Shown here: one piece after another, positions 19,575-58,821 of the stretch
Layout: the number at the start of each line of letters is the position of its first letter
Numbering within the stretch: position 1 is the first letter of the stretch
NCBI RefSeq assembly: GCF_009763805.1
Contig: NZ_CP046803.1
Location: 248,001 to 312,000, forward strand
Direction: 5' to 3'
DNA: 64,000 bases
From: Vibrio cidicii
GTDB taxonomy: Bacteria > Pseudomonadota > Gammaproteobacteria > Enterobacterales > Vibrionaceae
The notes under the pieces: generated by a model
The model's input: only the letters and a program-made list of their open reading frames with translations
Told to the model about the DNA's origin: nothing
Database searches by the model: none
Position numbers and translations under genes: made by a program

Positions 19575-20820
19575 TCACTCTAATTTCATTTTAACTTGGT
19601 TTCGGCCCGCCTTTTTCGCTTGATAGAGGGCCTCATCAGCCAACGTGCGAATGGCATCGGGATCTTTAGAGGTTCTGCTGTCGGATAAACCAATACTCAC
19701 CGTTACATTGACGGTTTTGGGTTTATCATTCGCATTTCCACGGCGTCTTTTACCATCACTGTGATTATCCGGACGAGTTTCATCATCTCGAATTACCAGC
19801 TTGTAGCTTTCAATGTCAGCGCGAATATCGTCGAGATACTCTTCAACCTCACGTGCACTTTTGCCTTTAAATACAATCACAAACTCCTCACCGCCGTAGC
19901 GATAAACTTTTGCGCCACCATTGATGTTCAGAAGACGTGAGCCAACCAACTTCAGAACATCGTCACCAGTATCGTGACCATAGGTATCGTTAAACTTTTT
20001 AAAGTGATCCACATCAACCATAGCGATAGCAAATTTTCTTCCCAAATGCTTTAAGTCCATTTCTAACGCACGTCTGCCAGGAATCTGAGTGAGGACATCA
20101 ATGAATGCAAGCTCATGGCTCGCCGAAATAACATAGATGATCAATAAGATACCAGCGAGTGAAAACATGGTGCTAGAGATGTATTTCACATCAAAAAAGA
20201 TAAAAGTCACTGACGCAAATAATAGGCAAGAGTAGATCACGACTTCAATTGGGCGGTTGTGCATCAGCACGAGAATAGCAGTACTAAGAACCACACCTAT
20301 ATAGTATGCAACCAATACGAAAGGGAGTTTCGACACATAAGGAATTGAAAACAAGATTCCTTTTCCCCATAGTGCAACTCCTGCTTCGTTGAAGTAATCG
20401 AGAGACACATACGACCAAAGCAATAAGGTGGCGAGTACCGAGAGGTAAATCGCGATCGAGCGATGGTGCATGCCGGTTGCATTAAACAGATAGACAATAA
20501 AACATGCACTCGGTAATAGAAAGGCAAGCAGAGATAATTCGATCAGCGCGGAAACCGGATGAAAGGGGAATCTGAAGCCGATTCTGAATCACAGAGTACG
20601 CCATCAGCATCGCCATCGATATCATGGCAATTCTACCTTGCTTAAAGACACTGCAGAGTAAAAACGCGGTAATCAGAAAGAAATAAGGTAAGTTAGCGGC
20701 CAGGCCCCAATTGGCTTGTGTGACTAAAATGATGTTGTCCATACCAAAAAAGATGATCCCGAGTAAAAATAGGGGGAAAATCATTCTGAACTGTGCAGAG
20801 GTAACGAACGGTAATGCCAT
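19575..20820 (-). pseudogene. membrane-bound diguanylate cyclase (GGDEF), interrupted by a +1 frameshift
   Basis: The restored protein has about 414 residues. The N-terminal half holds roughly seven hydrophobic segments of an integral-membrane sensor. The C-terminal GGDEF domain has RYGGEEF and the metal-binding DVDHFKKFNDTYGH, so the domain looks catalytically intact. In the sequence as given the frame breaks near 20552: removing one T from GGTTTCC (minus strand, AAA on plus at 20552-20554) joins ...PLSSG to SALIELSLL and restores one long reading frame. Placement within about 20 nt is not unique. Its start is the ATG at 20818-20820. It is convergent with the REC-GGDEF gene. Confidence 0.8.
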
Positions 20821-21024
20821 TAAAAGCCGCTATCCTATAAAACAAACTTATGTGTCGAGTAACCTGCTAGGATACGATTATTTCTCGATTTTCCAAGCTT
20901 TTTGCTAAACTTAGTGGGGAATTATTGACGGTGTTGGTAAAAGTTAAATGCACAGCTTGGACGCCGATAAAACCTTAGTATAGAGTGGCTGAAATAGACT
21001 CAATTAAAACAAGGAGTTGTATAG

Positions 21025-21402
21025 ATGCAAATTAGTGTAGATGTACATAACTACATGGAAACTTTAGTGGGTCAGGTGCTCGCTCGAGAAGAATATACAC
21101 AGGAGTTCACATCGGAACAATTAGCCGATTTGGCGTGTTTGGCGCTTGTGCAACTGAAACCCGTCTATATCAGGCATGATATTGATTTTTTGTCGGCATT
21201 ACCGGAAGCTCGATTGGTGCAATTTAAAAGAAATAGCGAAATTGCGGTAAAAAATGCAGAAAGTATGATTATTGACGACCGAAGACAAAATCGTAGTTTC
21301 GATGATGTACCTGTGGTCTTTTCGCACGTCAATTATGATGATGACGCGACGCTAGAGTGGTTTGAAAAACCAATATTACCAACACATAAAGCACATAAAT
21401 AA
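21025..21402 (+). CDS. ComFB-like small protein
   Basis: A 125-residue soluble protein. Its opening region (VHNYMETLVGQVL...TSEQLADLACLALVQLKPVYIRHDIDFLSAL) has the helical pattern of the late-competence ComFB family. Some ComFB-domain proteins have been reported to bind cyclic dinucleotides. The usual zinc cysteines are not evident, with only Cys42 in this region. It is preceded by AAGGAG and followed 8 nt later by the HlyU-domain gene. Two diguanylate cyclase genes lie immediately upstream, so a link to c-di-GMP is possible but unproven. Confidence 0.6.
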   Translation: MQISVDVHNYMETLVGQVLAREEYTQEFTSEQLADLACLALVQLKPVYIRHDIDFLSALPEARLVQFKRNSEIAVKNAESMIIDDRRQNRSFDDVPVVFSHVNYDDDATLEWFEKPILPTHKAHK

Positions 21403-21410
21403 GAGGTTAA

Positions 21411-21692
21411 ATGGGACTTTTTTCGCGTCTGTTTGGTTTAAAAACGAAGCCAGTTGAGCAACTGCAGGTTGAGGCTGTTGAGTATAAGGGGTATTTGATA
21501 TACCCGGAGAGCAAAGCTGAGGGAGGGCAATTCCGAGTCTCTGGACGTATCACTAAGGAGAACGAAGGTGTCCTAAAAACCCACCAATTTATACGTTCTG
21601 ATCTCCTATCATCGGAAAGCGATGCTAACGAACTGATGATTAAAAAATCACAAATGTTTATCGACCAAATGAAAGACGACATATTTAATTAA
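21411..21692 (+). CDS. HlyU-domain (PF10115-type) protein
   Basis: A 93-residue protein starting MGLFSRLFGLK, with VEYKGYLIYPESKAEGGQFRVSGRITKE followed by HQFIRSDLLSS and ANELMIKKSQMFIDQM. This pattern matches the small family named HlyU in protein-domain databases. It is unrelated to the ArsR-type HlyU of Vibrio, so the name should not be taken to mean a hemolysin activator. No helix-turn-helix is visible. It lies 8 nt after the ComFB-like gene and is followed by a terminator. Confidence 0.75.
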   Translation: MGLFSRLFGLKTKPVEQLQVEAVEYKGYLIYPESKAEGGQFRVSGRITKENEGVLKTHQFIRSDLLSSESDANELMIKKSQMFIDQMKDDIFN

Positions 21693-21727
21693 AAGTATCT
21701 CAGGATTTGATTCCAGTCATCTTTGCT

Positions 21728-21765
21728 AGAGCCATTAGTGTTTATGCTGATGGCTCTTTTTGTTT
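21728..21765 (+). terminator. intrinsic terminator
   Basis: Stem AGAGCCAT / ATGGCTCT with a 14-nt loop that can pair further, followed by TTTTTG. It ends the ComFB-HlyU-domain unit. Confidence 0.75.
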
Positions 21766-21996
21766 TGACACAAAAGTGTAATCTATGTGGTTGTAAAATA
21801 ACCAATAATTTAAGGTCTGGTTGGACCTCCGTCTTGTTAGTGCATCATTGTTTTATCTCATGAAGTGCGTAGAGTTCATTCATTACGTGGGGTTATATGT
21901 AATGAAATTTTGTATTTTAACTACAAAATGCTTGAAGTCGTATTCTGTGTCCGATACAAAAAGATGAGTAACAAGACCAATAGTCAAGGAATAGCT

Positions 21997-23554
21997 ATGC
22001 AAGTTGGTGTACCAAGAGAACGACTCGCGGGAGAAACGCGGGTTGCTGCATCGCCTAGTTCGGTTGAGCAGCTAATAAAATTAGGTTTCGATGTAGTCAT
22101 CGAAACGCAAGCGGGGGCTTTGGCGAGCTTCGATGATGCAGCTTACGCAGCGGCTGGTGCGAAGTTAGTCTCGTCTGAAGAGGCGTGGAAATCAGAGCTG
22201 ATCTTGAAAGTTAATGCGCCAATCGTTGACAGTGAAAATGGCATCGATGAAATCGCATTGCTACAAGAAGGTGCAACCTTAGTCAGTTTTATTTGGCCAG
22301 CGCAAAATCCTCAGTTGATGGAGCAACTATCTAGCAAAAAAATCAACGTATTAGCTATGGACGCGGTACCTCGAATTTCGCGCGCTCAAGCGCTGGATGC
22401 GCTCTCATCCATGGCGAATATTGCTGGTTACCGTGCGGTAGTCGAAGCTGCACATGAATTTGGGCGCTTTTTTACGGGACAGATTACTGCTGCTGGTAAA
22501 GTTCCGCCAGCAAAAGTGTTTGTTGCAGGGGCAGGGGTTGCGGGTTTGGCGGCCATCGGTGCGGCAGGTAGCCTTGGCGCAATCGTGCGTGCATTCGACG
22601 TTCGTCCTGAAGTGAAAGAACAAGTCGAGTCGATGGGCGCGCAATTTCTTTCGGTCGATTACCAAGAAGCGGCGGGTAGCGGTGATGGTTATGCTAAAGA
22701 AATGTCCGATGACTTTAACAAAAAGGCCGCTGAGTTGTATGCAACCCAGGCAAAAGATGTTGATATCATCATTACAACGGCATTAATTCCTGGCAAACCT
22801 GCCCCTAAGTTAATCACTAAAGAGATGGTCGACAGCATGAAGCCCGGCAGTGTGATCGTAGACTTAGCCGCTGCAAACGGCGGTAACTGCGAATACACGG
22901 TGGCCAACCAAGTTTTTACGACCGCAAATGGCGTAAAAGTCATTGGTTACACCGACATGGTGGGAAGATTACCGACTCAGTCGTCTCAGTTGTACGCGAC
23001 CAATTTAGTCAATCTTTTTAAACTGCTGTGCAAAGAGAAAGATGGCACGATTAACATCGACTTTGAAGACGTTGTGCTTCGTGGCGTAACCGTAGTCAAA
23101 GAAGGTGAAGTCACTTGGCCAGCGCCGCCAATTCAAGTCTCCGCTCAGCCCCAATCTCAGCCGAAAGTTGCCGCCAAAGTAGAAAAGAAAGCCGAAGAGC
23201 CTGTTTCTCCGGTGAAGAAACTGCTTGGCCTTGCTGCCGCTGTTGGCGCATTTGCTTGGATTGCGTCTGTGGCTCCTGCTGCTTTCTTGTCTCACTTTAC
23301 CGTGTTTGTTTTGGCTTGTGTGGTGGGTTACTACGTCGTTTGGAACGTGACTCATGCGTTACACACACCCTTGATGTCAGTCACGAAACGCTATCTCGGG
23401 CATTATTGTCGTTGGTGCGCTTTTGCAGATAGGCCAAGGAAATGGGGCCGTTACCTTCTTGGCATTTATTGCCATATTAATTGCGAGTATTAACATCTTT
23501 GGTGGCTTTACGGTGACCAAGCGTATGCTCGAAATGTTCCGCAAAGATAAATAA
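21997..23554 (+). pseudogene. pntA: NAD(P) transhydrogenase subunit alpha, with a +1 frameshift near the C-terminus
   Basis: Membrane-bound proton-translocating transhydrogenase alpha subunit, about 518 residues when restored. The ATG 21997 follows AAGGA and gives the conserved start [17 protein letters not shown]. The NAD-binding domain has [20 protein letters not shown]. The C-terminal third is a proline-rich linker plus membrane segments. After LMSVT the frame shifts: ACGAAACGC at 23384-23392 should read ACGAACGC to give the family sequence [20 protein letters not shown] and the normal end near 23554. As given, the frame ends at 23493 with an unrelated tail. pntB follows after 13 nt. Confidence 0.93.
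22529..22536 (+). other. KOPS motif (FtsK orienting sequence)
   Basis: GGGCAGGG, matching GGGNAGGG, on the plus strand inside pntA. It points rightward toward the dif-like site at 30035-30062. Confidence 0.45.
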
Positions 23555-23567
23555 TAGGGAGTCATCA

Positions 23568-24962: not shown

Positions 24963-24983
24963 ACGATACGGTTACTACACTCG

Positions 24984-25009
24984 AAGGTCGGTGAAAACCG
25001 ACCTTTTTT
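24984..25009 (+). terminator. intrinsic terminator of pntAB
   Basis: Stem AAGGTCGGT / ACCGACCTT with a GAAA loop, followed by TTTTTA. Confidence 0.85.
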
Positions 25010-25112
25010 ATAACAAACGCGAACCTCTGCGTGAAATACCAGTCATAAAATGTCTATTTTTGTGAATATGCTGTATATTGTGTCCAGATTTCACTGCATT
25101 TAATCGTTAACT

Positions 25113-28086: not shown

Positions 28087-28149
28087 ACGGCTAAATAAAT
28101 CTTCTTCACTGCCGATACAAAACAAAAAGAAATCTCAGGATTATTTATC

Positions 28150-29280: not shown

Positions 29281-29295
29281 TCATATCGCTATAGT

Positions 29296-29486: not shown

Positions 29487-29516
29487 GTACGACCCCACAA
29501 TAAACTAAAAGTCAAG

Positions 29517-30023: not shown

Positions 30024-30034
30024 TTTATTACCGC

Positions 30035-30406: not shown

Positions 30407-31096
30407 CTACCCGCCTGCTAGCTTAACTTTCATGCCTTTTTTCTCTAGGTATGATTTGATTTTCTCTCGAACATCACCCTGAATTTCAATGTTTCCATCT
30501 TTGACCGAGCCGCCACAACCGCAGGTTTTCTTCAGCTCAGCTGCAAGTAGTTTAAGAGGTGCATCATCAAGATCTAGCCCTGTAACTACACAGACCCCTT
30601 TGCCTTTCCGGCCTTTAGTTTCACGCTGAATGCGTACAATGCCATCACCTTTGGGGCGTTGTGCTTTAGGCTCATCTTGCTTAATTCGGCCTGTCTCTGT
30701 GGAATATACAAGAGTCATAACTATTTCTTCTGTTGCTGTTTCTGCTTTCTGTTTTGCAATCAAATAGGCCTCAATGTGGCGTTGAATAGCCGCTTTTGAA
30801 CCCTTAATGAGTTTACCATTAAAAAAACAATACCAAGCGTTTGGTTCGCCAGTGTCATTTTTAATGGAAAAACCATTAAAATTTTCTGCTTGAGGTGTTC
30901 CGGATTCTAGCTTCCTATCTAAAGATGCAAACTCTCGAGGGTCAATGATGGATGCAGTGTCACACCACCAGTCAATGCTCTTCTTGACGGCGCTCAAGCT
31001 CCCCTGAAGAACATGATTCTTTATTCTTACCTGCCAGACACTGGTGTCATTACCAGCAGACTTTAAGTTAAAACCACGGTAATTTGATATAGCCAT
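30407..31096 (-). CDS. yciH: YciH (SUI1/eIF1-like) with N-terminal DUF3319-like duplicated domain; fusion may be artefactual
   Basis: As given, one 229-residue frame. Residues 127-229 match E. coli YciH closely (LVYSTETGRI, GDGIVRIQRETKGRKGKGVCVVTGLDLDD, CGCGGSVKDG, GMKVKLAGG). YciH is an eIF1-like factor thought to act in translation-initiation fidelity. Residues 1-126 hold two copies of a ~40-residue motif with a shared FxIK...W...GS..A pattern, which I recall as DUF3319. The two parts may be separate genes: removing one A from the minus-strand GAAAC at 30739-30741 would end the first part at a TAG (30721-30723), 2 nt before the yciH ATG (30718). A 103-residue YciH would then span 30407-30718, the usual length. 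Confidence 0.8.
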   Translation of the reverse strand: MAISNYRGFNLKSAGNDTSVWQVRIKNHVLQGSLSAVKKSIDWWCDTASIIDPREFASLDRKLESGTPQAENFNGFSIKNDTGEPNAWYCFFNGKLIKGSKAAIQRHIEAYLIAKQKAETATEEIVMTLVYSTETGRIKQDEPKAQRPKGDGIVRIQRETKGRKGKGVCVVTGLDLDDAPLKLLAAELKKTCGCGGSVKDGNIEIQGDVREKIKSYLEKKGMKVKLAGG

Positions 31097-31198: not shown

Positions 31199-32155
31199 AT
31201 GAAAAAAAACCTTTATGCATATACAGATACCACTGAAGTCAAAGGGCTTATCGAACGATTGAGCCAAAGGCCCGATCTGGAGTTTTTCAATCAGTTTACC
31301 CAATTCAAGTATGCCAAAAATTCGCTACTCGCCATACAAAATGACTGGAGTCGGTACCTAGATTTTTGCAACCAAGCAAAAATAACCATACTACCCTGCT
31401 CTATCATTGCCATGCGGCGCTTTATTGAAACCGAAGCAAGGGAGAGAAAATATTCATCGATTCGACGTTCATGTGTTCATATTGGCCTAATTCACCAACT
31501 ACTCTCATTGGCTAACCCAACCTCACATCGCACGATTCAATTATCACTCAATGTATTGCGCTTAGAAAAAGACACAAGCCCTGTTCAAGCTATTGCATTT
31601 ACCAAAGAGCACCTTGCTCTATTGCACTCCACTTTATTGAAAAGTAAGAACAATAAAGACATCCGCGATTGTGCTATCTACTCAATTATGTTTGAGTGCG
31701 CCGCAAAACGCTCAGAGTTAAAAGCACTACGATTGGAATCTGTGCGGAAAACTGGCGGTACAGTTTCCATTACGGTTGGTGATAGCGCTTACCACTTGAG
31801 CGAGCTAAGTAGCCTAGCCTGTCAGCGTTGGCTAGAACGTTTACCTGCCGATGCTCATTACCTTTTTGCCGCGATTGACAAACACGGTAACCTCTCCTCA
31901 AGCCAACTTGATGATTCTTCGATATTTAGAATCATGCAAAATGCAGGGAAACGATTGGGATTGGATGAGACTTTTTCAGGCCAATCTGGGCGTATTGGTG
32001 CGGTAGAGCAACTGCGTACTCAAGGGATGAAAATTAAAGAAATACAAGACTTTGGGCGCTGGCTTAGCCCTGCCATGCCTTATCAGTACGCAGGACGTCA
32101 AGGCATGGCACAGCAAGAAATGCGGAAGTTTAAAATAATAAAACCGTGGGATTAA
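31199..32155 (+). CDS. tyrosine recombinase (phage-integrase family), atypical active site
   Basis: A 318-residue tyrosine recombinase with an N-terminal SAM-like core-binding domain and a C-terminal catalytic domain. Arg171 lies in CAAKRSELKALR. The box II region reads FSGQSGRIGAVEQL, with Gln262 in place of the usual His and Arg265 conserved. Trp288 (GRW) and the nucleophile Tyr297 (PYQYAG) are present. It is not XerC or XerD by sequence. There are no other phage or integron genes around it. It begins 103 nt from the divergent yciH frame and about 1.1 kb from the dif-like site. Its stop overlaps that of the convergent ddl gene in TTAA. Confidence 0.82.
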   Translation: MKKNLYAYTDTTEVKGLIERLSQRPDLEFFNQFTQFKYAKNSLLAIQNDWSRYLDFCNQAKITILPCSIIAMRRFIETEARERKYSSIRRSCVHIGLIHQLLSLANPTSHRTIQLSLNVLRLEKDTSPVQAIAFTKEHLALLHSTLLKSKNNKDIRDCAIYSIMFECAAKRSELKALRLESVRKTGGTVSITVGDSAYHLSELSSLACQRWLERLPADAHYLFAAIDKHGNLSSSQLDDSSIFRIMQNAGKRLGLDETFSGQSGRIGAVEQLRTQGMKIKEIQDFGRWLSPAMPYQYAGRQGMAQQEMRKFKIIKPWD

Positions 32156-36845: not shown

Positions 36846-37734
36846 TTATTTCAACTTCCAGTGCTTTTTCAAATGCTGAATACACCACGACTTGGCTTCA
36901 CCCATTTGATTGCGTTTCCAACCGAGCACAATGTTCATCGTCTTAGTGTCACTGCCGGAGATCTCTTTCAGAAAACCTTGTTCAATTAACGGTATCGCCA
37001 TGCTGCTGGGTAACGTGCCAATGCCTAACCCTGCAATCAAGGCATCGATCTTTGCTTGCAGATTGGTTACGGTTAAACGAGGTTGCTTTTGGATCACGTT
37101 GACGCTTAGCGCTGGCTGCTCACGGGCCGTATCGGCAATGGCAATGATGCGGTGTTTTTCTCTCACGGTGTCATCAAACTGCCCACTTCGATTGTGAATA
37201 TAGTGGTTTGCCGCGGCTACCCAAATCATCGACATCTTGCCAATCAATTCGGTTTTTACATCGTGAGGAACCACGTCCAGTGCGGGACAGACTAACAAGT
37301 CGGCTCGTCCAGATTGTAAGGCTTCCCAACACCCCGCTAAGATTTCTTCTTGTAACCTGACTCTCGTTTTGCTCACGTTGCCCAGCGCTTCGACTAAAGG
37401 GAAAAAGTGGTTTACTGAGATAATGCCATCGTAAGCAATCGTGATGTCTAACTCCCATCCGTTTCGCCAGTAACGTGGCGTCATTGACTAACTTTTCAGT
37501 CGCACCAAGGATCGTTCGCCCTCGCTCCAAGATCAAACGTCCTGCCTCGGTAAAGTTTGCCTTATGACCGGATCGATCAAAGATCATGATGTCCAGCTCT
37601 TGCTCCAACTTCTGGATCTGATAGCTGAGCGAGGATGGCGCCCTATCAAGCTCATTGGCCGCGGCGGCAAAACTTCCGCGCCTTTCGATGGCATCAAGGA
37701 TATGTAGCGCTTCTAATGTTATCGGACTTTGCAC
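36846..37734 (-). pseudogene. hupR: LysR-family regulator HupR, with a +1 frameshift
   Basis: A restored protein of about 295 residues. An N-terminal helix-turn-helix (LEALHILDAIERRGSFAAAANELDRAPSSLSYQIQKLEQEL) and a C-terminal co-inducer domain are typical of LysR regulators. It is divergent from the heme-receptor gene, as V. vulnificus hupR is from hupA. In the given sequence the frame breaks at 37462-37464: removing one A from GCGAAACGG (minus) changes LLAKRMGV to LLANGWELDITIAYDG, the expected start of the effector domain. The start is probably GTG 37734, 5 nt after AGAGG. The regulator name rests on context. Confidence 0.75.
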
Positions 37735-37966: not shown

Positions 37967-40104
37967 ATGTATAACAAAACGTTTCTTTCAGCCTCAATAC
38001 TATTAGCTCTCTCTGCTTCAGTACAAGCAGAAGAATATGGATTATTCGATGAGATTGTTGTGACAGCGACACGCTCAACACAAAATAAGCAAGATGTTGC
38101 AGCCTCGATTAATACGGTCAATGCGCAAGATATCGATAAATCTCTAGCCACAGACGCAAAAGATGCGCTCAAATACACTCCGGGCGTCGAAGTCAAATCG
38201 GGCAGCCGTTTCGGTATTTCAGGCTTTAACATTCGTGGTATGGAAGACAGCCGGATTCTCACCGTTGTTGACGGTGTACAGCAACCTGTTGGGTACAACC
38301 CAGGTGCAACAGAAACAGCGCAAATACAGCAATGCGGTTGAAATCGATACATTACAAGCGATAGAAGTCAACAAAGGGCCCTCTTCTACACTTTATGGCT
38401 CAGATGCTTTGGGTGGAATGGTACAATTTCGGACTAAAAATCCAAGTGATGTTTTAGTTGATGAGAACGACGGACATCGATTTGGAATTAAGTCGACTTA
38501 TACTTCTGTCGATGAACAGTTTAAAAACACCCTAACTTGGGCAATGCGTCAAAGCCAACTAGAAACTCTACTCATGGTTACCTATGCTCAAGGGCATGAA
38601 ACTCAGTCACACAGCTCAGGTGCGAACGTTGAGGGCCCAGATCGTGGGTTAACTAACCCCGCAGACACAAAGTTGGGTAACCTACTTGCCAAAGTACAAT
38701 ATCAAGCCAATGAAAATCATCGTTTAGGCTTAACCCTAGAACACTACACCAAAAGCTATGATGAAGATGAACTCAATTACAATGGCTATGCCATCATGCC
38801 TGGTTTTGTCTACAGCGATAACTTTAACGAAGACGTTAACGAACGTACCCGCGTGTCAATTGAGCACCAATGGTTGATGGACACATTGCTCGCTGATTCA
38901 AGTTTAGCCACTCTGAGTTATCAAACTTCAAGCTCTCTCAACAAAAACTACGATACTACACCAAGCAACGGTGTACGAATGAGAGAAAGAGAAGCAGAAG
39001 ATAAATCTGTACAACTAGATGTTCAGCTAAATAAAGTCTTAGAGATAGGCGAAATACCTCATGATGTTACCTATGGAGGCAACTATCTAAACAACGCGTT
39101 TAGCTTGGAAAATACCGATTATCTATATAGCTCTGGTACTTCTCGTCCCGGCAACACCGCTCTTCCAGACGCAGATATGATCAAGTGGGGCTTGTTTGCT
39201 CAAGACCAAATGTATTTTTGGGATGAGCAATTAATCGTCACTGCGGGCATTCGTTATGACGCATTTGAGGCGAAACCAAAAACAGATACGGGTTTCACAA
39301 CAGAGTATGAGTCCAATAAGGACAAGGCGTTTACAGGTAAATTGGGGGCAGTTTATCACCTTAAAGACAACCTCTCTCTATTTGGCCAAATCAGCCAAGG
39401 ATTTAAAGCTCCAACTGTTTACGATCTTTACTATTTCTACAACCAAGGCGCTATTATCGAAGCTAATCCTGACTTAAAAGCGGAGCGTAGCACATCATAT
39501 GAGGTTGGTACACGCGGATACAATGACTATGGCAACATCGAATTTGCTCTGTTTTTTAATGATTACAAAGATTTCATTACGCAAACCAAAACCGGTGAGT
39601 CAGGTGACAAAGATATCATCAGTAAATACAACATTGATGAAGTTCGTATCTATGGTGCAGAGTTAAGCTCATCCCTATTGCTAGATAAAGTGTCTCCTTT
39701 GCCTCATGGAAGTTATGCACGTTTGTCAGTAGCTTACGCACATGGTGAAGATAGATCCACAGGGAAAGAAATTGACACTGTTGCGCCGTTAACAACAGTA
39801 TTTGGCATTGGCTATGAACAGATAGAATTTGGCTCAGCACTAAATGTAAAAATGGTCGCAAGCAAAGATAAATGGTTGTTAGAAGACAATATAGATGTCG
39901 CGGGTTATACCGTTGTTGACCTAACCGCTTACTATTCACCGATGAAAGATCTGACATTTAAAGCAGGACTGTTTAATCTCTTTGATAAAAAATATTGGCA
40001 TTACTCTGATATGTCTGGAAAAACTGGTACCGAAAAATTCAGTAATGACTACTTCACCCAGCCAGGAAGGAAACTGGGGGGTGAATGTGGACTACAAGTT
40101 CTAA
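37967..40104 (+). pseudogene. hupA: TonB-dependent heme receptor HupA, with two +1 frameshifts
   Basis: The restored protein has 711 residues, in line with my memory of HupA (about 712). A signal peptide (MYNKTFLSASILLALSASVQA) and the TonB box-like DEIVVTATR are followed by the plug and a long barrel that should end ...WGVNVDYKF. As given, frame 1 stops at 38341 and frame 2 runs to 40145 with a non-family tail. Removing an A from CAGAAACAG (38313-38315) and from AGGAAACTGG (40071-40073) restores GATEQRKYSNAVEID and QPGRNWGVNVDYKF. HupA imports heme iron from hemoglobin across the outer membrane. A Fur box and hupR lie upstream. Confidence 0.88.
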
Positions 40105-40118
40105 CTATCGGTAAAACA

Positions 40119-40143
40119 AAAAGCCAGCAACTGCTGGCTTTTT
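40119..40143. terminator. bidirectional intrinsic terminator after hupA
   Basis: Stem AAGCCAGC / GCTGGCTT. A runs precede it and Ts follow it on the plus strand, so it can end hupA and also the small minus-strand gene at 40191. Confidence 0.78.
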
Positions 40144-40190
40144 AACACTCTATTTTTAAAAGAAAGAAAAAAGTTAGGAAAAATAAAGCG

Positions 40191-42392: not shown

Positions 42393-42895
42393 AGCGCAGC
42401 CTCCTTGACGCTGGCAAGTCGCAGTAAACTCGACCCTATGGTGTAACGCTCACTGACCAAATTCTGCGAACAGATCAGCGGTTTTATCCTGCCCTCGTTC
42501 TCTTGCAGTGCGATGATCCCGCCATCCCGCAGAAAGTGGCTTTGCGAACTAATTGTGACCGCGTAACCACCAACACTACGCACCCGCTCGCTTGTGAGTG
42601 GCTTACCATAATAGATAATGTCGCAGGGTTGATTGCTTGAGTTGACTACGGCTAAAGTCAAATCGCGGATAGTTTTTCCTTCAATCACTTTGGCTAATGT
42701 TTGCTTTACTTTGTCATCATCTTGGACACAAAAGTAGATGTGCGTTTTACTCGGCTCTTCATTCCAAAAAACAAAGTTGCTGATCTGGTAGATATACACC
42801 GCCACCACTTCATGTGGTTGGAACTTGTCTGCCTGAGTCAAAAACGGGCAAAGTGATGCTATCAATCCGCAAAGCAGGCGGATTTTAAAATTCAT
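42380..42895 (-). CDS. YfiR-like periplasmic protein (DUF4154)
   Basis: A 171-residue protein with a signal peptide ending near SLCPFLTQA. The core VVAVYIYQISNFVFWNEEP...HIYFCVQDDD and DIIYYGKP...GGYAVTISSQSHFLRDGGIIALQENEGRIKPLI is the DUF4154/YfiR pattern. YfiR proteins sit in the periplasm and repress a YfiN-type diguanylate cyclase until released by redox or envelope cues. The gene overlaps the TonB receptor gene by 11 nt and the cyclase gene by 13 nt, so all three are one coupled operon. Confidence 0.85.
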   Translation of the reverse strand: MNFKIRLLCGLIASLCPFLTQADKFQPHEVVAVYIYQISNFVFWNEEPSKTHIYFCVQDDDKVKQTLAKVIEGKTIRDLTLAVVNSSNQPCDIIYYGKPLTSERVRSVGGYAVTISSQSHFLRDGGIIALQENEGRIKPLICSQNLVSERYTIGSSLLRLASVKEAALCLH

Positions 42896-44872
42896 AACTG
42901 AGCCTCACATAGTGAATTTGCTCACTCTTAAACAGTGACAGAGTATTGAGATCATCGGCACTGCCAACGCCACCTAAGTTTTGCACCACTACTTCGACTT
43001 TAGGGTAGTTAGGGGCGTATTGCCAAGACAGCTTCATATCTAAAGTGACGACATCATCTAAAGCAATGTTCTTGTTTTTCCAATGCTGATAATAAATGGT
43101 GCTATCCCATTGCAGTTGTTTGTTAATGTCCCAAAGCAATTGCAATGACAACAAATGCTGCTGATCGATGCTGGCCCAGAGCGCGGATGTACCGTTGGAA
43201 TAATCTCCACCTAGCCAATCGATATCTAAGTTCATATAACTGTAAGCAGCATAAATTCGAGTATCCGTTTCGTGCGCACCATTCAACTGCCATTTCAACG
43301 CCATGCGATGTGCCTTGATAATCATCGATAGTAAACGCATTAACAATATCCCCTGCATCGAAGGAATCGACCATCACCACATTGTCGTGCAGCGAATAGT
43401 AAACGGTCATATCTAAGCTGAACTGGGGATGATAAGTGATTCGATAGCCAAGCTCGTAACTTACCACTGACTCCGATTTAAGTTGGTCGCTAGGGTACAC
43501 CACCACCTGTTTCGGCGTTGCATCGTAGTAAACAAAGTAAGAATTGCTGTCGATATAGGATGGCGCAACCACCGCTCTGCCTACGCCAGCCCAAATCTGC
43601 TGACTCTCAGAAAAGCTATACATAGCGCGCAGTTGAGGTGAAACTTCCAAAGCGGACGTCTGGCTAAAATACTCGGCTTTGACACCCAAGGTGGTGCTGA
43701 AGTTTTCGCGCCACTGTTTATCGATTTGCCCATAAGCATTGAAAATTTGCTCATGAGCGCGGCGCACATCATAGACACGGTACAAAATATCAACGTTATT
43801 CTCATCCCACTCGGACAATTGTACGCCAGAAAAATCAAGTTTTATGAAACGAGCTCCTGCGCCTATTTGCCACCGAGTCTCACTATCTGAGTAATCGAAG
43901 TAGTTGGTATCAAGATCAAGAGTCATGTACTTACCGGGCGCGTCTTTAGCGTTATCCTTGTTGTAATCAAACCACAAAGAACTCTCCCACTTCACCCCTT
44001 CGACCAGATATTGTGCATATTGCAGTTGACCAAAAGCACTTGTCGCCTGAACGTCAAGCTCTTTAGGCCCCCATTGGCTACCATTCCAGTAGTCACTGTC
44101 TCGTTGGTAACCATATTGATTGGCTCCAACACGCAAGGTGATATCACGATTTTCTTCCCTATGAGCAAACAAAACGCCGCCCGTCTGGTTGAGCCATGTC
44201 TCGCTGTCATAAGAGAGGTCCGAGCGGTTACTTTTCTGCTTGTAGAATACCCGCCCTTGCGTCTCTTCGCTGATAGAAAAGCCTTGCCTCACGCCAAGCT
44301 CATAGTCTTGCTTATTGCTGTAATTTCCTTCAACTAAGCTAGAAAGTGTGAATTCAGCGCGTTTAGTGATGATGTTCACCACACCATTGACAGCATTGCC
44401 TCCCCAAATACTACCCGACGGCCCTCGCAGCACTTCAATACGATCAATATCAGCGAGCAGATAATCAATACCAGGCCAATAGACGCCACCATAGACGGGG
44501 CTGTACACCGTTCTGCCATCGATCAAAACCAACAGCTTGTTGTATAAACCGCCGTGAAATCCTCTTGCTGAAACGTACCACTCTGTTTCTGAGAATTTGC
44601 TGACACGTAAACCGGGGACAAGCTTAAGCGCTTCGGGGATGGTACGAAACGCCGCTGCGCGCAATTCGCTCACCGCTTAACACGTAAACTGAAGCAGGGA
44701 TATCGGAAAGCTTTTGTGCTGTTTTGGCGACGGTTTGCACTTCCACTTCCAGCATGCCTAACTCTTCAAGGCTCATATCCATGAGTTGTTTGAGAGCGTC
44801 TGTTCGACTGCTGGCATACACTGGATATGACATCAGGCAGATTAGATTGATGAGTGTTGCAGTATTTTTCAT
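42885..44872 (-). pseudogene. TonB-dependent outer-membrane receptor of a YfiR-cyclase operon, with two +1 frameshifts
   Basis: A restored protein of about 661 residues. A signal peptide and a plug domain with SDIPASVYVLSGERIARSG and IPEALKLVPGLRVSKF lead into a barrel ending VRLSYEF. As given it is in three pieces. Removing one T from GGCGTTTCG (minus, 44647-44649) joins the signal part to the plug, giving RSGVRTIPEAL. Removing one A from CACGAAACGG (minus, 43268-43270) or a nearby base joins the barrel halves. The ligand is unknown. It precedes a YfiR-like gene and a diguanylate cyclase in one operon. No Fur box was found upstream. Confidence 0.78.
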
Positions 44873-45781: not shown

Positions 45782-45792
45782 GAGGAAGAGAT

Positions 45793-47495: not shown

Positions 47496-47499
47496 ACGC

Positions 47500-49258: not shown

Positions 49259-51701
49259 TTAGCCATACGAGTTATTCATGGGTGTCAATAACTGTTTGAT
49301 TAAACTTGATACAACCATGAACAATGTCGCCAACGCCAAGGTGGGCAATAGCAGCCACAAATGTGGATGCAGCGTAGCGGATAAGTCAAAGCCGAAACGC
49401 ATCACCGCCGCCACCGTTGCTTCCGCGCCGAGAGCAGAAATCGCACTGGCAATCAGAGCCATGATGCCATATTCCGCCCAGATGGTACGCGTGACCCGTT
49501 TTTTCGACGCACCCAATGTGCGGTACAAGCGGATCTCTTGCTGACGCTGCGCTAAACTCAGGCGCAACAAGGTAAAGATCAACATCACTCCCGCCATCAC
49601 CCCCATGAGTGCCAAAATCGAAATCGACCACACTATCTGTTCAACCAGATCTTGGATCTTGCTCGCCATGGTGCGAATGTCGAGCACACTGACGGTCGGG
49701 TATTGCCGCGACAACTGATTCAGCAAGGATGTCTGGTGCTCTTCAATACGAAAACTGACCAAATAGGATGCAGGAATAGACGCCATCACATCCGGTGTAA
49801 AGATGAAATAGAAGTTAGGCTTCATATCACGCCACTCAACGTGACGAATGGTGTTGACCGTCGCGTTGAAGGTTTGACTGTTCACCACAAACGTGAGTGT
49901 ATCGCCAATCTCGATTCCCATCTCTTCAGCTACTTTAGCTTCAACCGACACGCCTTGCATTGGCGTCCAACTGCCCGCGGTCACCTGATTATAATCAGGA
50001 ATGCTGTCTCCCCAAGTAAGGTTTAACTCTCGACTCACTGCGTCACTACGCTCTTGGCCATCTGGCCGGCTATCACTGGTGACATTTTCACCGTTGATAG
50101 CAGTAAAACGGCCGCGAATGATCGGGTAAGCCGGAGAAACGATTCACTTGGTTCTGGTCTAAAAACGTCAAATAAGGGTCAAGTTCAAAGTCACTGATAT
50201 TGAGCGCAAACACATTGGCGGCATCGGCAGGCAGTGTCCGCTGCCAATCTTTAAGCAGATCGGTACGCACCAGCCAAATGATCGCCAATAACATGAGCGA
50301 CAATGACAACGCCCCCAACTGCAACCCACTGCCGAGTGCCGAGCGGTTGATGCGGCTCAGTGCCAGTTTAACGGAGGTAGAAAATGGTAAGCGTGCCAAT
50401 AGCTTACTCAGCGCTAAGCCAACAAAGGCTAGCACAATGAAAAGCAGCATGATTGCCCCGAGCACAATCCACACCATGATGTTATTGTGGTAAATCGCCA
50501 ACATAGGCAAAAGTGGCACCCCAATCAGCAGCCAGGTTTTCGATGGGATGGCTTTCTGCTGGTTGTCTGTTTGCATCACATTGATCGCTGATGTATGTAA
50601 CAGAGCCGACAGCGGAATGCCCAAAGCGGGAATCGCAATCAGTAGCGCGGTAAACAATGAGACTAAATACGGCGTAATGCCATACGATGGAAGCGGGTCG
50701 GGCAGCAGATCTTTCAATGGAATGCGCAGCAACTGCTCCAGACCCATGCCAATCAGGACGCCGATAACGGCCGCGCATACAAATAGCAGCGCTAGCTGAA
50801 TCGCTAACCAACGGGCTATCCACGCTCGGCTAGCACCAATGCTTTTTAACATCGCGATGGTTTGTTTTCGCGTGACAACGTAATTTTGGCAAGTTAGCAC
50901 GAGTGTTGTCGCCGCCATAATGATAACAATCGCGACGGTGAGAGACAGATATTGATTGGTGCGTTCAAACACTTCGCTACTACGACTGGCACTCTCCTGA
51001 TCGCGCCAGCGATCACTCGGCGTCAGCTCAACGCTCTCTTTGACCTTCGCAATCGCTTGATCACTGCCGACGATAAACAGACGATACTGCACACGACTAC
51101 CCACTTGAATCGCACCAGTACGGGCTACATCCGTGTCGTGAATATACGCCGCTGGCATCTGTTGAAACGGGTTGAAGCTTAATCCGGGTTCGCTCTCAAT
51201 CACGCCAGAAACGACAAAATCTGCGTCGCCAATCGTGACATTGTCACCTTGCGTAACCTCCAGCCTTTCCATAATCCGGCTATCTAACCACAGTTCCCCC
51301 GGGTTCACATGCTGAGCGCGAGTTGTGTCGCTGCGCAGGCTCAGTTCACCAAGCAGCGGATAGCTCGATTGCACCGCTTTGACGGTGACTAACTGCATCC
51401 CCGTGTCACTAAAGGCCATGGTGGCAAAACGGGTCATTTTTGAGGTGGTAAGCGCTTCACTCTTGACCGCATCAAGCAAAGTTTGTGGCAGAGGATTGGC
51501 GGAAATGAAGAGCGTATCGGCGGTGAGTGCATCTTTGCCCTGCTTGACGATCACCTGTTCCATACGCGTTGCCAAGGCCGATAAAGCAAACACCGCAGAG
51601 ATGATCAGCACCAGTGCGACACTGATTGGCCAGAGGTTGCCATGGCGTATCTCTTCCAAACTCCAGGCGGTGAGCCTACGATTTAATCCGTTTGATGCCA
51701 T
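49259..51701 (-). pseudogene. FtsX-like ABC transporter permease (YbbP-like), with a +1 frameshift
   Basis: A large permease of about 813 residues when restored, with two FtsX-type membrane-domain units: one in the N-terminal half (TM near LWPISVALVLIISAVFALSAL, MacB-like periplasmic loop) and one at the C-terminus (IVWSISILALMGVMAGVMLIFTLLR). As given, the frame stops at 50088 after ...NRFSGLPDHS. Removing one T from CGTTTCTCC (minus; AAA at 50137-50139) restores NRSPAYPIIRGRFTAING. With the adjacent ATPase and divergent tesA it matches the E. coli ybbA-ybbP-tesA arrangement. The substrate of this exporter is not known. Confidence 0.8.
51235..51247. other. matS site (MatP-binding)
   Basis: GTGACATTGTCAC, an exact consensus match, inside the permease gene. 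Confidence 0.8.
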
Positions 51702-51702
51702 A

Positions 51703-52380
51703 CTAACTTGCCTCCGACAGTTGACCTGCATCCATGCTAAACACGCGTTGGCAGCGCTGAGCAAGCTTCATATCGTGCGTCACTAACACTAACGTCGTGC
51801 CATGGTGTTGATTGAGCTCAAACAGCAGCTCAATGATTTTTTCTGCCGTGTGTTGATCGAGATTGCCGGTCGGTTCATCGGCAAACAAAATCTTCGGCTG
51901 GGTCATAAATGCACGTGCCAAAGCCACCCGTTGCTGCTCGCCTCCCGATAACTGGCTCGGGAGGTGATCCACTCGCGAGGCCAAACCTACCGAAGCAAGC
52001 AACGCTTTACCTCGTTCGTTATCCTCCTCTTCCCCTTTGAGCAGACACGGTAAAGTGACATTTTGCAGTGCGGTCAGGCTTGGAATGAGCAAAAAACTTT
52101 GGAAAACAAAGCCAATCGATTCACTGCGTAGCGCGGCACGCGCTTCATCGTCCAAACGAGACAAAGGTTGATCGAGCAGATAAACTTCGCCGGATGAGGC
52201 GACATCAAGGCCAGCTAAGAGTGTCATCAGGGTTGACTTTCCTGCACCGGAGGTGCCTACAATAGCCACACTCTCTCCTTCAGCGACTTCAAGATTGACA
52301 TCGCTTAGGATTATTAACTTCTCATTGCTTGTAGATACTTGTTTGCTAACGGATTTTGCTTTAATTACTGGAGATTGCAT
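51703..52380 (-). CDS. ABC transporter ATPase (YbbA/LolD-like)
   Basis: A 225-residue ATPase. The Walker A motif [10 protein letters not shown]-loop VFQSF, signature LSGGEQQR and Walker [13 protein letters not shown] are all present; the LolD/MacB group is indicated by [21 protein letters not shown] spacing and EPTGNLD. The start ATG at 52378-52380 overlaps the tesA start on the other strand. The stop lies 1 nt from the permease ATG, so the two genes are coupled. It probably energises the FtsX-like permease. Confidence 0.88.
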
Positions 52381-52981: not shown

Positions 52982-53062
52982 TTTTAATGCCCTAGCTCAA
53001 ATCATTTTACGTTTCTTTACGTTAGCCTAACTGCCTCTTTATCCCCCAATCAGGAAAATGGC

Positions 53063-54266
53063 ATGCGCATAGAACCACAAATTGATGGCGTTGTTGCCCG
53101 CTCAGCCCATCCCTATGGCTGTGAAGCTGCAATTAAACAACAAATAGAGTACGTAAAACGCGCGCCACAGATCACTCAAGGCCCTAAACGGGTACTGATC
53201 CTTGGCGCTTCCTCTGGATTTGGTCTTGCTGCTCGCATCGCACTGACGTTTGGCGGCGCCAAAGCAGACACCATCGGCGTCTCGTTTCGAACGTGGCCCA
53301 AGCGAAAAAGGCACTGGTAGTGCGGGTTGGTACAACAACATTTTTTTCAAAGCGCAGGCACAAAAAGAAGGCCGTACCGCCATCAACATCGTCGGAGACG
53401 CCTTTGCCAAAGAGACGCGCGAGCAAGTGATTGAAGCGATAGAGACCTATTTCGATGGCGAAGTTGACCTTATTATTTACAGCCTAGCGACTGGCATGCG
53501 GCCCATTCCGGGCAAACCCGGTGAGTTTTGGCGTAGCGTGATCAAACCCTATGGTCAGCCTGTCATCGGCGCCTCCCTCGATTTACAGCATGACCGTTGG
53601 ATTGAAACCACGCTTGAGCCTGCCAGTGATGAGGAAGCCGAGCACACCATCAAAGTGATGGGCGGTGAAGATTGGCAAAGTTGGGTGGATGCACTTATCA
53701 ACACCGAATCCATCGCTGAAGGTTGTAAAACCATCGCCTTTTCTTACATCGGGCCGGAAGTCACTCACCCGATTTATCTCGACGGTACGCTAGGCCGGGC
53801 GAAAATCGATCTGCACCAAACCAGCCATGCGCTCAATTTGGAAATGGCCAATTTCAATGGCAGCGCCTACGCCACCGTCTGTAAAGCCTTGGTGACCAAA
53901 GCGAGCGTGTTTATTCCCGCGTTGTCTCCCTATCTGCTTGCCTTGTATAAAGTGATGAAAGCTGAGCAATGCCATGAAACCTGCATTGAACAGATGCAAC
54001 GTTTATTTAGTACGAAACTCTATGGTCAAGCGAAAGTCGACGTGGACGGTGAACGCTTGATCCGCATCGATGAGTTAGAACTGGCTCCGCATATTCAGCA
54101 AAAGGTTAACGCTCTGTTGTCTGAAATGAACGGCGACAACTTTAAGCAACTTGGCGATTATGAAGGTTATAAAGGCGAATTTCTTAAACTAAACGGCTTT
54201 GGCTTTGAGTCAGTTGATTACACTCAAGAGATTGATCTCGCTGACTTGAAAAAGTTGCGCCCTTAA
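53063..54266 (+). pseudogene. fabV: trans-2-enoyl-CoA/ACP reductase FabV, with a +1 frameshift
   Basis: The restored enzyme has 400 residues, the usual FabV length. It starts MRIEPQIDGVVARSAHPYGCEA, has the NADH motif VLILGASSGFGLAARIA and the YX8K active site in YLDGTLGRAK. FabV carries out the last step of fatty-acid elongation and is resistant to triclosan. As given, the frame stops at 53320. Removing one T from TCGTTTCGAACG (53285-53287) joins IGVS to FERGPSEKGTGSAGWYNN, the conserved continuation. The gene stands alone, followed by a terminator. Confidence 0.93.
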
Positions 54267-54314
54267 GCCGCCAGTGTATATGTCTTAAACTTGAGATTCT
54301 GTTTTTGACTGATG

Positions 54315-54345
54315 AAGTCCCGACCACATTTCGGGACTTTTTTTC
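54315..54345 (+). terminator. intrinsic terminator of fabV
   Basis: Stem AAGTCCCGA / TCGGGACTT with a 7-nt loop, followed by TTTTTT. Confidence 0.85.
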
Positions 54346-54456
54346 ATCTTGTTCTGCTTAACTCCTATACTTAAACCCAAGCGCACTCTGCTCCCATTTG
54401 AGGCGCTCCATGTGACCACAGGATGTGGTGACAACGAGGATAAGGACTGCCAAGTC

Positions 54457-56371: not shown

Positions 56372-56457
56372 TATCGGGCACAGACCCGATTTGGCTTTAC
56401 TCTTCCTCCGGCGATTCCTATAATCGCCGCTTTTGTGTTTCTAAAAGGCTGATTGTT

Positions 56458-58113
56458 ATGGACCTGTTGACTGCAAAACTCAAAAAGCTCGAAAAGCAAA
56501 ACTATCGTGCCTACCAGCAGATAAAAGGACAATACAACTTTGGCGATTTCGACCTTTTCATCGATTATGTTCAGTCGGATCCCTTTGCTTCTGCGTCCCG
56601 ATTCCGCGCTTTCCGTGCTTGGTCTTTAACTGGCCTTTCTTGGCTGCGTGATGAGTCGCCCGCTTATCAACTGGCTGCGCGTGATTTCATCGCCCGTAGC
56701 TTTGCCGAATTTGCCAAGCAAGAATCCAGCGTTTCTATTGCGCTGCATGGTCAAACCGTCCTTGATAGCACTGCCGTTTTGTTTACAGAAGATGGTATTG
56801 AGCTGCGCTTTAGAGTCAACCTGCCAGCGGAAGGGCGCGATATTCTGGCGAAGAAGGCGCTTAATATTCTGACCTTCCACCTGCCCAAATTTATCCGCCG
56901 CGCGACCATCGAGCGAGAACTCGACAAAGAGGCGCTGATCAAACATTGTCAAACCGTCGAAGACCAAGATTCGCTGCGCGAACAGTTAGCCAGTCACGGC
57001 TTGGTCGCGTTTGTTGCTAATGGAAGCCGTTTGCCACGCGTAGCGGGTAACTGCGATTTGCCCATGAAAGAGGCAGTGGAGTTTCAAGCGCCAGCCTCAT
57101 TGCAAGTAACACTGCATGCGCCGAATCGTGGTTTTGTCAGCGGTTTAGGTATTCCCAAAGGCATTACCTTGATTGTCGGTGGTGGTTTCCACGGCAAATC
57201 GACGCTGCTGAGCGCCATTGAGCGCTCTATTTACAACCACATTCCGGGTGATGGCCGAGAGTACAGTGTCACCGACATCAATGCGATGAAGATCCGAGCG
57301 GAAGACGGTCGCTGCGTGCATCACCTCAATCTGTCGAACTACATCAACCATTTGCCGATGGGGAAAGAGACGGCCGATTTTACCACTCAGGATGCCTCAG
57401 GCTCGACATCACAAGCGGCTTGGCTACAGGAGTCGGTTGAAAGCGGCGTGAGCACTTTGCTGATTGATGAAGACACCTCAGCCACCAACTTTATGATCCG
57501 TGATGAGCGTATGCAGGCATTGGTTGCCAAAGGCGACGAACCTATCACGCCATTGGTTGACCGAATTGGCCAATTGCGTGACGAGTTGGACATCTCTACC
57601 ATTATTGTCATGGGTGGCTCAGGCGATTATCTGGACGTTGCCGATACCGTAATCCAGATGCACGATTACCAAGCGGTTGATGTGACAGAAAAAGCGAAGC
57701 AAGTGATTGCATTGCACCCAACTCAGCGTCACAACGAATCTGAATCACCTTTGGTCACATTTCCGCCTCGCGCGTTAAACTGTCAGGCGTTGATGAACAT
57801 TCTCACCGATGGCAAGTTCCGCGTTTCCGCCAAAGGAAAAGAGTCGCTACGCTTTGGTAAAGAGTTTGCGGATATCTCAGCGTTAGAGCAGTTGGAATCA
57901 TCTGACGAGGTGAATGCCATCGGTTGGGTTTGGTATCAGTTGGCACAAATGCCCGGTTGGTGTAACAACCCGGCAAAAGCCGTTACCGAACTACTGCAAG
58001 GCGCATGGTTTGAGAAGATGCCTCAGCATGGCGACCTCGCCAAACCTCGCCCACTCGATGTGATGGCCGCGCTTAACCGCATGCGTAAGTCTCAGTTTCG
58101 CAATAACAACTAG
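56458..58113 (+). CDS. predicted ABC-class ATPase (PF09818-type)
   Basis: A 551-residue soluble protein. A P-loop-like VGGGFHGKSTLLSAIERSIYNHIPGDGREYSVT is followed by LLIDEDTSATNFMIRDERMQALV, which includes a Walker B-like motif, and IIVMGGSGDYLDVADTVIQM. The family is described as an ABC-class ATPase, but it has no membrane partner and no known function. The ATG at 56458 is preferred over an upstream extension because it gives the conserved MDLLTAKLKKLEKQNYRAYQQIKGQY start. It is followed by a strong terminator. Confidence 0.8.
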   Translation: MDLLTAKLKKLEKQNYRAYQQIKGQYNFGDFDLFIDYVQSDPFASASRFRAFRAWSLTGLSWLRDESPAYQLAARDFIARSFAEFAKQESSVSIALHGQTVLDSTAVLFTEDGIELRFRVNLPAEGRDILAKKALNILTFHLPKFIRRATIERELDKEALIKHCQTVEDQDSLREQLASHGLVAFVANGSRLPRVAGNCDLPMKEAVEFQAPASLQVTLHAPNRGFVSGLGIPKGITLIVGGGFHGKSTLLSAIERSIYNHIPGDGREYSVTDINAMKIRAEDGRCVHHLNLSNYINHLPMGKETADFTTQDASGSTSQAAWLQESVESGVSTLLIDEDTSATNFMIRDERMQALVAKGDEPITPLVDRIGQLRDELDISTIIVMGGSGDYLDVADTVIQMHDYQAVDVTEKAKQVIALHPTQRHNESESPLVTFPPRALNCQALMNILTDGKFRVSAKGKESLRFGKEFADISALEQLESSDEVNAIGWVWYQLAQMPGWCNNPAKAVTELLQGAWFEKMPQHGDLAKPRPLDVMAALNRMRKSQFRNNN

Positions 58114-58131
58114 GTTTTCAGCTTGATAACA

Positions 58132-58161
58132 AACGCCCTGCACAATGCAGGGCGTTTTTTA
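58132..58161 (+). terminator. intrinsic terminator
   Basis: Stem AACGCCCTGCA / TGCAGGGCGTT with a CAA loop and a T run. Confidence 0.85.
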
Positions 58162-58202
58162 GTTGGTGGACTTAATCGATGGTGAACTTCATAGATGGTA
58201 AA

Positions 58203-58821
58203 TTAGTGACGCAAAACGTTCCAGGCTTCGCACAGAATGCGAAAGCGCTCTGCGTTGCCATTGTCGCGATCTGGATGCCAACGTAGCGCCAATCGACGCC
58301 AACGTTTACGAATGTCTGCGGCGGTGGCGTGTTGATCCAGTTCAAAAAGCTGCAATGCCTTATTTCTATCGATATCATCACCTTCGTGGTGCCCCACAAA
58401 ACGGCGATATCGGGTCCAGAAACTCATTTAACAGTCGCTTCACTTCCCCTTCATTGGCTTCGTAGTTTTGCCACTGCACATAGTACTCACGCAGCGGATC
58501 ATCGACATCAATGGTGTGGCCAGCGCAAGCGTGGCTTGACATCAGCACGATATCCATCGCTTCCACTTGCAACCAATTGTCAGGATACAGCGTTTCTTGC
58601 AACTGATAGAGTGCGTTCATGATGAGAAAGTTGCGTTTAAATAGATCTTTCTCTGGCAGAGGGTCAAGTTCATAGATAAAACCCTGCTCACCTAAATGGG
58701 CGGCTAACGTGTGCACTTTCCATCCACTGGGCTGCTTACGAAGAACCTCCAATATTGGCCACAACAGCGGGTTTTCCATGTACGTCTGAAACGTACTCGC
58801 CAGATTGGTCTGCTCCTGCAT
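58203..58821 (-). pseudogene. DnaJ-related protein, with a +1 frameshift
   Basis: The restored protein has about 205 residues. The N-terminal ~145 residues match the DnaJ-related domain, and the C-terminal part is a J-domain with the HPD motif in RWHPDRDNG. J-proteins stimulate Hsp70 ATPase; this type is a DNA-J-like protein of unknown client. The frame breaks at 58420-58422: removing one T from GAGTTTCTGG (minus) gives NEFWTRYRRFVGHH and links the two domains. It is transcribed alone. Confidence 0.83.

What the first reader, a model, noticed from the sequence alone, without database searches (positions are those of the whole stretch)
19575..58821. All detected frameshifts can be explained by the same change: GAAC read as GAAAC
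I found 13 places where deleting one A from GAAAC (on one strand) restores a family-consistent sequence: 20552, 23386, 27910, 30739, 37462, 38313, 40071, 43268, 44647, 50137, 53285, 54698 and 58420. All are insertions; none is a deletion. Seven are tightly placed by conserved residues (for example pntA SVTNAISG, fabV GVSFERG, hupA QPGRNWG). The others are placed within about 20 nt and each permitted stretch includes a GAAAC. Housekeeping genes such as pntA and fabV are affected, which argues against real decay. Many GAAC tetramers are unaffected. Likely a systematic base-calling or assembly error tied to this context; a genuine mutational bias is less likely.
Basis: partly seen in the sequence, partly recalled or inferred. 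Interest (0 to 1): 0.9.

Follow-up and report, generated by a model that had tools for sequence, protein, structure and literature searches.

The report
Sulfur-marked DNA sites misread as frameshifts
Many apparent broken genes in this marine bacterium's genome are probably sequencing errors at the short DNA word that its own sulfur-tagging (phosphorothioate) defence system is predicted to mark, so the errors may record where the tags sat.

Summary
In 994 kb sampled from the assembly (303 kb comparable with relatives' proteins) I found 69 frame breaks: 61 of the +1 (extra base) class, 53 of them on GAAAC/GTTTC, and 8 of the -1 class, none on it; about 2.2 of 69 are expected. rpoC, secE and trpS are among the genes hit and the word lies on either strand, so decay or programmed frameshifting is untenable. 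The cause it did not name is most likely DNA phosphorothioation. The genome carries dndBCDE plus dptFGH, whose E. coli/Salmonella relatives put sulfur at GpsAAC/GpsTTC. Flanks of the error sites match the published in vivo preference (C-2, A/C-1, T/G+1, G+2). A second same-genus genome with a dnd locus shows the signature (17 of 24 breaks); four genomes without a dndC match show none (0 of 39). Errors from untrained modifications, and nanopore signals of phosphorothioate, are in print; my searches listed no paper on this consensus-insertion footprint. Not shown: reads, sequencing platform, or chemical proof of sulfur.

The parts
19593..20820 (-). GGDEF-domain gene lying in two frames; census break at GAAAC
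   Evidence: Pfam (ORF 19575-20471), reference span and break
22000..23545 (+). pntA-like transhydrogenase alpha subunit, frame broken near its 3' end; +1 class in 75 of 75 references, placed on GAAAC by 1 and about 20 nt away by 74
   Evidence: Pfam PF01262/PF05222/PF12769
27252..28083 (+). DUF2861 gene, frame broken near its 3' end at GAAAC
   Evidence: Pfam
30407..31096 (-).
   Evidence: Pfam; covered but no split in census
36849..37734 (-). LysR-type regulator in two frames (HTH in one, substrate domain in the other); census break at GAAAC
   Evidence: Pfam
37967..40145 (+). TonB-dependent receptor in two frames (plug domain split between them); described only
   Evidence: Pfam; no reference protein for base-level placement
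42885..44673 (-). second TonB-dependent receptor; main ORF lacks both ends of its profiles, the neighbouring ORF 42885-43358 has no Pfam match; described only
   Evidence: Pfam
49271..51731 (-). FtsX/MacB-type permease gene in two frames; census break at GAAAC
   Evidence: Pfam
53063..54263 (+). fabV-type trans-2-enoyl-CoA reductase gene, frame broken in its 5' part at GAAAC
   Evidence: Pfam PF12241/PF07055
54457..56356 (+). GGDEF-EAL gene in two frames; GAAAC within 8 nt but not 6 nt of the best break interval
   Evidence: Pfam
58209..58788 (-). gene in two frames; census break at GAAAC; family not examined

Best explanation
The strain's DndCDE complex replaces a non-bridging oxygen by sulfur between G and A (and G and T) at a subset of GAAC/GTTC sites, chosen with the flank preference (A/C)GAAC(not A). 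Native DNA was sequenced with a long-read method, most likely nanopore, whose base caller was not trained on phosphorothioate. At sites where most molecules carry the sulfur, the disturbed signal is read as one base too many in the AA (TT) run, the error survives into the consensus, and about 2.5% of GAAC sites in the compared regions appear as GAAAC frameshifts. Shown here: the +1/GAAAC census, the complete dnd/dpt locus, the flank match, replication in a second dnd-positive genome, absence in four genomes without a dndC match. Inferred: that sulfur is on the DNA, that it sits at those sites, the platform, and the insertion mechanism.
For: (1) 53 of 69 breaks at GAAAC vs 2.16 expected; 53 of 61 of the +1 class, 0 of 8 of the -1 class. 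At DNA level 47 of 50 alignable sites lack one base in the relative within 6 nt (3 of 53 not alignable). (2) Same genome: dndB, dndC, dndD, dndE, dptF, dptG, dptH by PADLOC and NCBIfam; DndC main piece 68%, DndD 52%, DndE 74% identical to those of an E. coli dnd locus. (3) GAAC/GTTC is the motif of E. coli B7A and S. enterica Cerro 87, and nanopore reads show errors at such sites, 25-fold fewer without dndC (PMC9069010, parts 1-3 of 4 read). (4) Flanks of 53 sites vs 2061 other GAAC sites: A/C at -1 48/53 vs 967/2061 (p 5e-11), T/G at +1 43/53 vs 1008/2061 (2e-6), G at +2 26/53 vs 542/2061 (5e-4), C at -2 20/53 vs 448/2061 (0.011): the four preferences reported for phosphorothioated sites in PMC9521924. 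(5) G010, also with dndBCDE and with rpoB and rpoC each split: 17 of 24 breaks at GAAAC, 0.92 expected; genomes without a dndC match: G117 0/11, G001 0/18, G007 0/4, G024 0/6. (6) dndC itself is split at GAAAC against 7 of 7 references.
Against: No reads, platform or chemistry could be seen. Most dndC-positive assemblies are clean at rpoC: of the 22 of 148 same-genus genomes over the DndC cut-off, 20 have an unsplit rpoC, as do 21 of 21 dndC-positive genomes other than G000 from the order sample (G135 and G136 are in both sets; G345's two matches lie in one frame). dndC-positive G120 has 1 break in 42 kb covered, not at GAAAC. That fits short-read polishing but is not proof. rpoB is whole in G000. 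Of the 69 breaks, 16 are not at GAAAC, 8 of them +1 class. In G010 only A/C at -1 (14/17, p 0.007) and not-A at +1 (16/17, p 0.03) are significant; T/G at +1, G at +2 and C at -2 are not. An in vitro study found no significant flank effect on modification (PMC4515589, passages), so part of the flank bias could come from the base caller.
Confidence: 0.88

Rival explanations
1. A DNA methyltransferase recognising GAAC (or a longer word containing it), not phosphorothioation, disturbs base calling.
For: Untrained modifications are a known cause of motif-bound nanopore consensus errors (PMC10687267, passages read). G000 holds one PF01555 match over the cut-off (of 2) and 4 PF02384 matches over the cut-off, one of them strong.
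Against: G010, with the same signature, has no PF01555 match and a single PF02384 match that barely passes its cut-off (21.6 vs 20.4 bits, E 2e-4), while both genomes have dndBCDE. The flank rule equals the one published for phosphorothioate. Other methyltransferase families (Dam type, C5 type, Eco57I type) were not searched.
Confidence: 0.07
2. A context-bound base-caller or polishing fault that needs no DNA modification.
For: The platform and software of these assemblies are unknown; the AA run is a short homopolymer.
Against: GAAAC ranks first of 512 5-mers, while 0 of 39 breaks in four genomes without a dndC match, two of them noisy, are at GAAAC; only about 2.5% of GAAC sites are affected and with strong flank selection.
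Confidence: 0.04
3. Real insertions: mutation or decay promoted at phosphorothioate sites, or programmed frameshifting.
For: Independent reads were not seen.
Against: rpoC, secE and trpS, core genes expected (general knowledge) to be essential, are broken together with an EF-G gene, glnA and pckA; the GAAAC word lies on the coding strand 32 times and on the opposite strand 21 times, which no translational signal would do.
Confidence: 0.01

Closest known systems
Dnd/Dpt phosphorothioation with GpsAAC/GpsTTC (E. coli B7A, Salmonella enterica Cerro 87)
   Same: Same genes (dndBCDE with dptFGH) and the same word; same flank preference (PMC9521924)
   Different: Here it is a Vibrio-genus genome, and the sites are inferred from assembly errors, not from chemistry
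Nanopore detection of phosphorothioate by error signal (PMC9069010)
   Same: Errors at native GAAC/GTTC that depend on dndC
   Different: That work compares reads with amplified controls; here the error is a fixed one-base insertion in an assembled genome
Modification-mediated nanopore consensus errors in Listeria (PMC10687267)
   Same: Assemblies of low quality because of an untrained, motif-bound modification
   Different: There the motifs are GCAGC and GCTGG and the errors are counted as mismatches; 0 occurrences of phosphorothio-, dnd or GAAC in its main text

Membership tests
Dnd phosphorothioation system | DndC, DndD, DndE present | tested here: met
   NCBIfam TIGR03183 (main piece), TIGR03185, TIGR03184 over cut-off; dndC lies in two frames
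Dnd phosphorothioation system | DndB regulator and DptF/G/H restriction partners | tested here: met
   TIGR03233, TIGR03238, TIGR03236, TIGR03237 over cut-off
Dnd phosphorothioation system | Cysteine desulfurase DndA or IscS | not tested
   not searched
Dnd phosphorothioation system | Sulfur in DNA at GAAC/GTTC | not testable with these tools
   needs mass spectrometry, iodine cleavage or reads; only indirect evidence here
GAAC/GTTC specificity class | Flank preference C-2, A/C-1, T/G+1, G+2 of the sites | tested here: met
   all four significant in G000 for the error sites taken as a proxy; in G010 only A/C-1 of the four
Modification-mediated long-read consensus error | Errors concentrated at one word | tested here: met
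   53 of 69 and 17 of 24 breaks at GAAAC
Modification-mediated long-read consensus error | Disappears on amplified DNA or with short reads; long-read-only assembly | not testable with these tools
   no reads or platform data held

The most novel reading that the evidence does not exclude
Long-read assemblies of dnd-positive bacteria can carry a base-resolution fossil map of phosphorothioate sites in the form of GAAC-to-GAAAC frameshifts. Because an error reaches the consensus only if most molecules give it, the map marks sites of near-complete occupancy, and it shows that a Vibrio Dnd complex follows the same flank rule as the Salmonella one. Public assemblies could be mined for phosphorothioate epigenomes without new experiments.
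Probability: 0.65. Interest if true: 0.72.

Novelty: new variant of a known kind. Interest (0 to 1): 0.62.

Why it matters
It explains a class of false pseudogenes in dnd-positive bacteria, gives a simple diagnostic (+1 breaks at GAAAC), and turns a nuisance into data: which of the many GAAC sites are heavily sulfur-modified is an open question, and assemblies already deposited may hold part of the answer. It also warns that annotators and decay studies can mistake an epigenetic footprint for gene loss.

Tried and rejected
Genuine decay, translational frameshifting and simple homopolymer error were considered and set aside for the reasons given under the rivals. A first family query, TIGR04062 (dnd_assoc_4), found nothing in the genome or in any of 14 controls and says nothing. 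A first census with all reference ORFs of at least 120 codons, overlapping and antisense ones included, gave 26 clusters with duplicates and was replaced by one with non-overlapping ORFs of at least 100 codons. E. coli as a third test genus was looked into: 204 of 5426 complete genomes match dndD, but I found no way with these tools to pick out noisy assemblies; the DGQHR gene split in two E. coli strains is shared by both and was not pursued. Paper searches for this footprint in print list none that describes it, judged by titles and starts of abstracts. Searches showed 15 of 352, 12 of 20, 12 of 15 and 10 of 91 papers; the other four showed every paper that matched. The library lacks most subscription papers.

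Full report
What was asked. I tested the coincidence, extended it to about a fifth of the genome and to other genomes, and looked for a cause.

The organism. The window lies in a genome of 4.75 Mb in two contigs (1.32 and 3.43 Mb), here called G000. The product of the ORF after pntA (464 aa; by position pntB, a name recalled) is closest, among the 80 loci kept, to Vibrio records (88% at best), and 24 of the 40 relatives drawn are of its genus. That the genus contains a listed pathogen is recalled; for that reason I compared and counted but restored nothing.

Census method. Non-overlapping open reading frames of at least 100 codons from stretches of relatives were compared by tblastn (E 1e-6, at least 45% identity) with the sampled DNA. 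A break is two collinear matches of one protein to one strand in different frames. It was placed by the sum of substitution scores of the two frames, and the interval of near-best places was padded by 6 nt. Where several references hit one break, a reference with a shift of exactly one base was preferred, then the narrowest interval. Expected numbers come from random intervals of the same widths in the same covered DNA. Choosing instead the narrowest interval of all, or the majority of references, gives 51 and 52 in place of 53 for G000 and leaves the other genomes unchanged.

Result in this genome. In 994 kb sampled, 303,165 bases were covered. There were 69 breaks: 61 of the +1 class and 8 of the -1 class. 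GAAAC/GTTTC lies in 53 of 69 intervals against 2.16 expected (p 2e-65) and ranks first of 512 5-mers. By class it is 53 of 61 and 0 of 8. Of the 8, 6 come from references in two stretches of G010, three of the six from one 122-codon ORF hitting three places, which I suspect are not genes. At DNA level, 50 of the 53 sites could be aligned to the relative, and 47 of the 50 show a net one-base gap within 6 nt; the relative reads exactly GAAC/GTTC at only 8, which fits the distance of these genomes (at most 77% identity over one 2.9-kb stretch). In an earlier, smaller pass the figures were 36 of 39 intervals, 33 of them among the 34 breaks with a shift of exactly one base.

The window itself. At pntA 1 of 75 references places the break on GAAAC; the other 74 show the same class of shift plus a gap of seven codons and are placed about 20 nt away. 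Site 30739 is covered but shows no split, and four sites lie in TonB-dependent receptors without a reference.

Not real lesions. rpoC is in two frames in G000, while rpoB is whole. Nine of the 53 reference orthologues of genes broken at GAAAC were named: rpoC, EF-G, trpS, secE, glnA, pckA, frdA, ntrC and an RND permease. That rpoC, secE and trpS are indispensable is general knowledge. The GAAAC word lies on the coding strand 32 times and on the other strand 21 times in G000, and 7 and 10 times in G010, so it is not a translational signal.

The cause. GAAC/GTTC is a known phosphorothioation word: recalled first, then read in PMC9069010 (parts 1 to 3 of 4) and PMC9521924 (passages and section 11). 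A search for DndC in G000 hit C2:667,119-668,520 in two frames. The surroundings (locus L084 = C2:650,001-670,000) hold dptF, dptG, dptH, an HNH protein and a DGQHR protein on one strand and, convergent, dndB, dndC, dndD, dndE. DndC (main piece), DndD and DndE are 68, 52 and 74% identical to an E. coli dnd locus, and DndE matches two solved DndE sequences, 4lrv and 5wtu; that 4lrv is from E. coli B7A is recalled, not shown by the call.

Flanks. Which GAAC sites are hit is not random: 53 hit and 2061 other GAAC sites in the covered DNA give 2.5%, and 48 of 701 (6.8%) within (A/C)GAAC(not A). The enriched letters are C at -2, A/C at -1, T/G at +1 and G at +2, the four preferences that EcoWI-seq found for phosphorothioated sites in E. 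coli carrying the Salmonella dnd genes, with similar ones in Salmonella itself. T at -1 occurs in 1 of 53 (37% of other sites) and A at +1 in 0 of 53 (31%). The caveat is that an in vitro study saw no significant flank effect on modification (PMC4515589, passages), so the base caller could add to this bias.

Other genomes. Among 148 same-genus genomes, 22 pass the DndC cut-off. rpoC is split into frames in G000, G010, G001 and G117; partial or second matches in G069, G075 and G090 were set aside as contig ends or copies, judged from the table only, and G054, G096 and G134 gave no match. G000 and G010 are dndC-positive, G001 and G117 have no dndC match. G010: 17 of 24 breaks at GAAAC, 0.92 expected. 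G117: 0 of 11. G001: 0 of 18, 17 of which are of the -1 class. G007 and G024, without a dndC match and with few breaks: 0 of 4 and 0 of 6. The dndC-positive G120: 0 of 1. Pooled, 70 of 93 in G000 and G010 against 0 of 39 in the four without a dndC match. Both genomes with the signature being dndC-positive by chance would have a probability of about (22/148) squared, 0.02, before the motif is considered. G010's locus has dndB, dndC, dndD (itself in two frames) and dndE. G010 has no PF01555 match and one PF02384 match barely over its cut-off, whereas G000 has clear ones of both kinds, which speaks against a shared methyltransferase of these families; other families were not searched.

Against. 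Most dndC-positive genomes look clean: rpoC is unsplit in 20 of the 22 of the genus sample and in 21 of 21 others from the order sample (G135 and G136 are in both sets). I read this as different sequencing and polishing, which I cannot check. In G010 only the A/C at -1 and not-A at +1 preferences are significant.

Novelty. Nanopore error signals at phosphorothioate sites (PMC9069010) and assemblies spoiled by untrained modifications (PMC10687267, passages) are known. A consensus-level insertion footprint at phosphorothioate sites was not apparent in the listings of my searches (some listings capped). I rate it a new variant of a known kind. An extrapolation of 53 breaks per 303 kb suggests several hundred such errors in the whole genome; this is inference.

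Noticed in passing
L084:11677-12555 and 13397-14560: An HNH-nuclease-like gene and a DGQHR-domain gene lie between dptH and the convergent dndBCDE genes; G010 and E. coli have a DGQHR gene in the same place.
   Followed up: no
L084:16981-18613: dndC, part of the modification complex, is itself split by the artefact that its product probably causes; in G010 dndD lies in two frames (L234:6585-8598).
   Followed up: partly
window 30407-31096: One ORF fuses DUF3319 with a SUI1 domain; it may be two genes joined by a frame change, which a split-gene test cannot detect.
   Followed up: no
L228-L230, L249-L253 (genome G001): Another noisy same-genus assembly: 17 of 18 breaks are of the -1 class with no GAAAC, a different error type.
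   Followed up: partly
L254 and L255, 6502-7662: The DGQHR gene beside dnd is annotated in two pieces in two E. coli river strains but whole in two other strains; being shared, it may be a real mutation.
   Followed up: no
window 31199-32155: A phage-integrase-family gene in the window.
   Followed up: no
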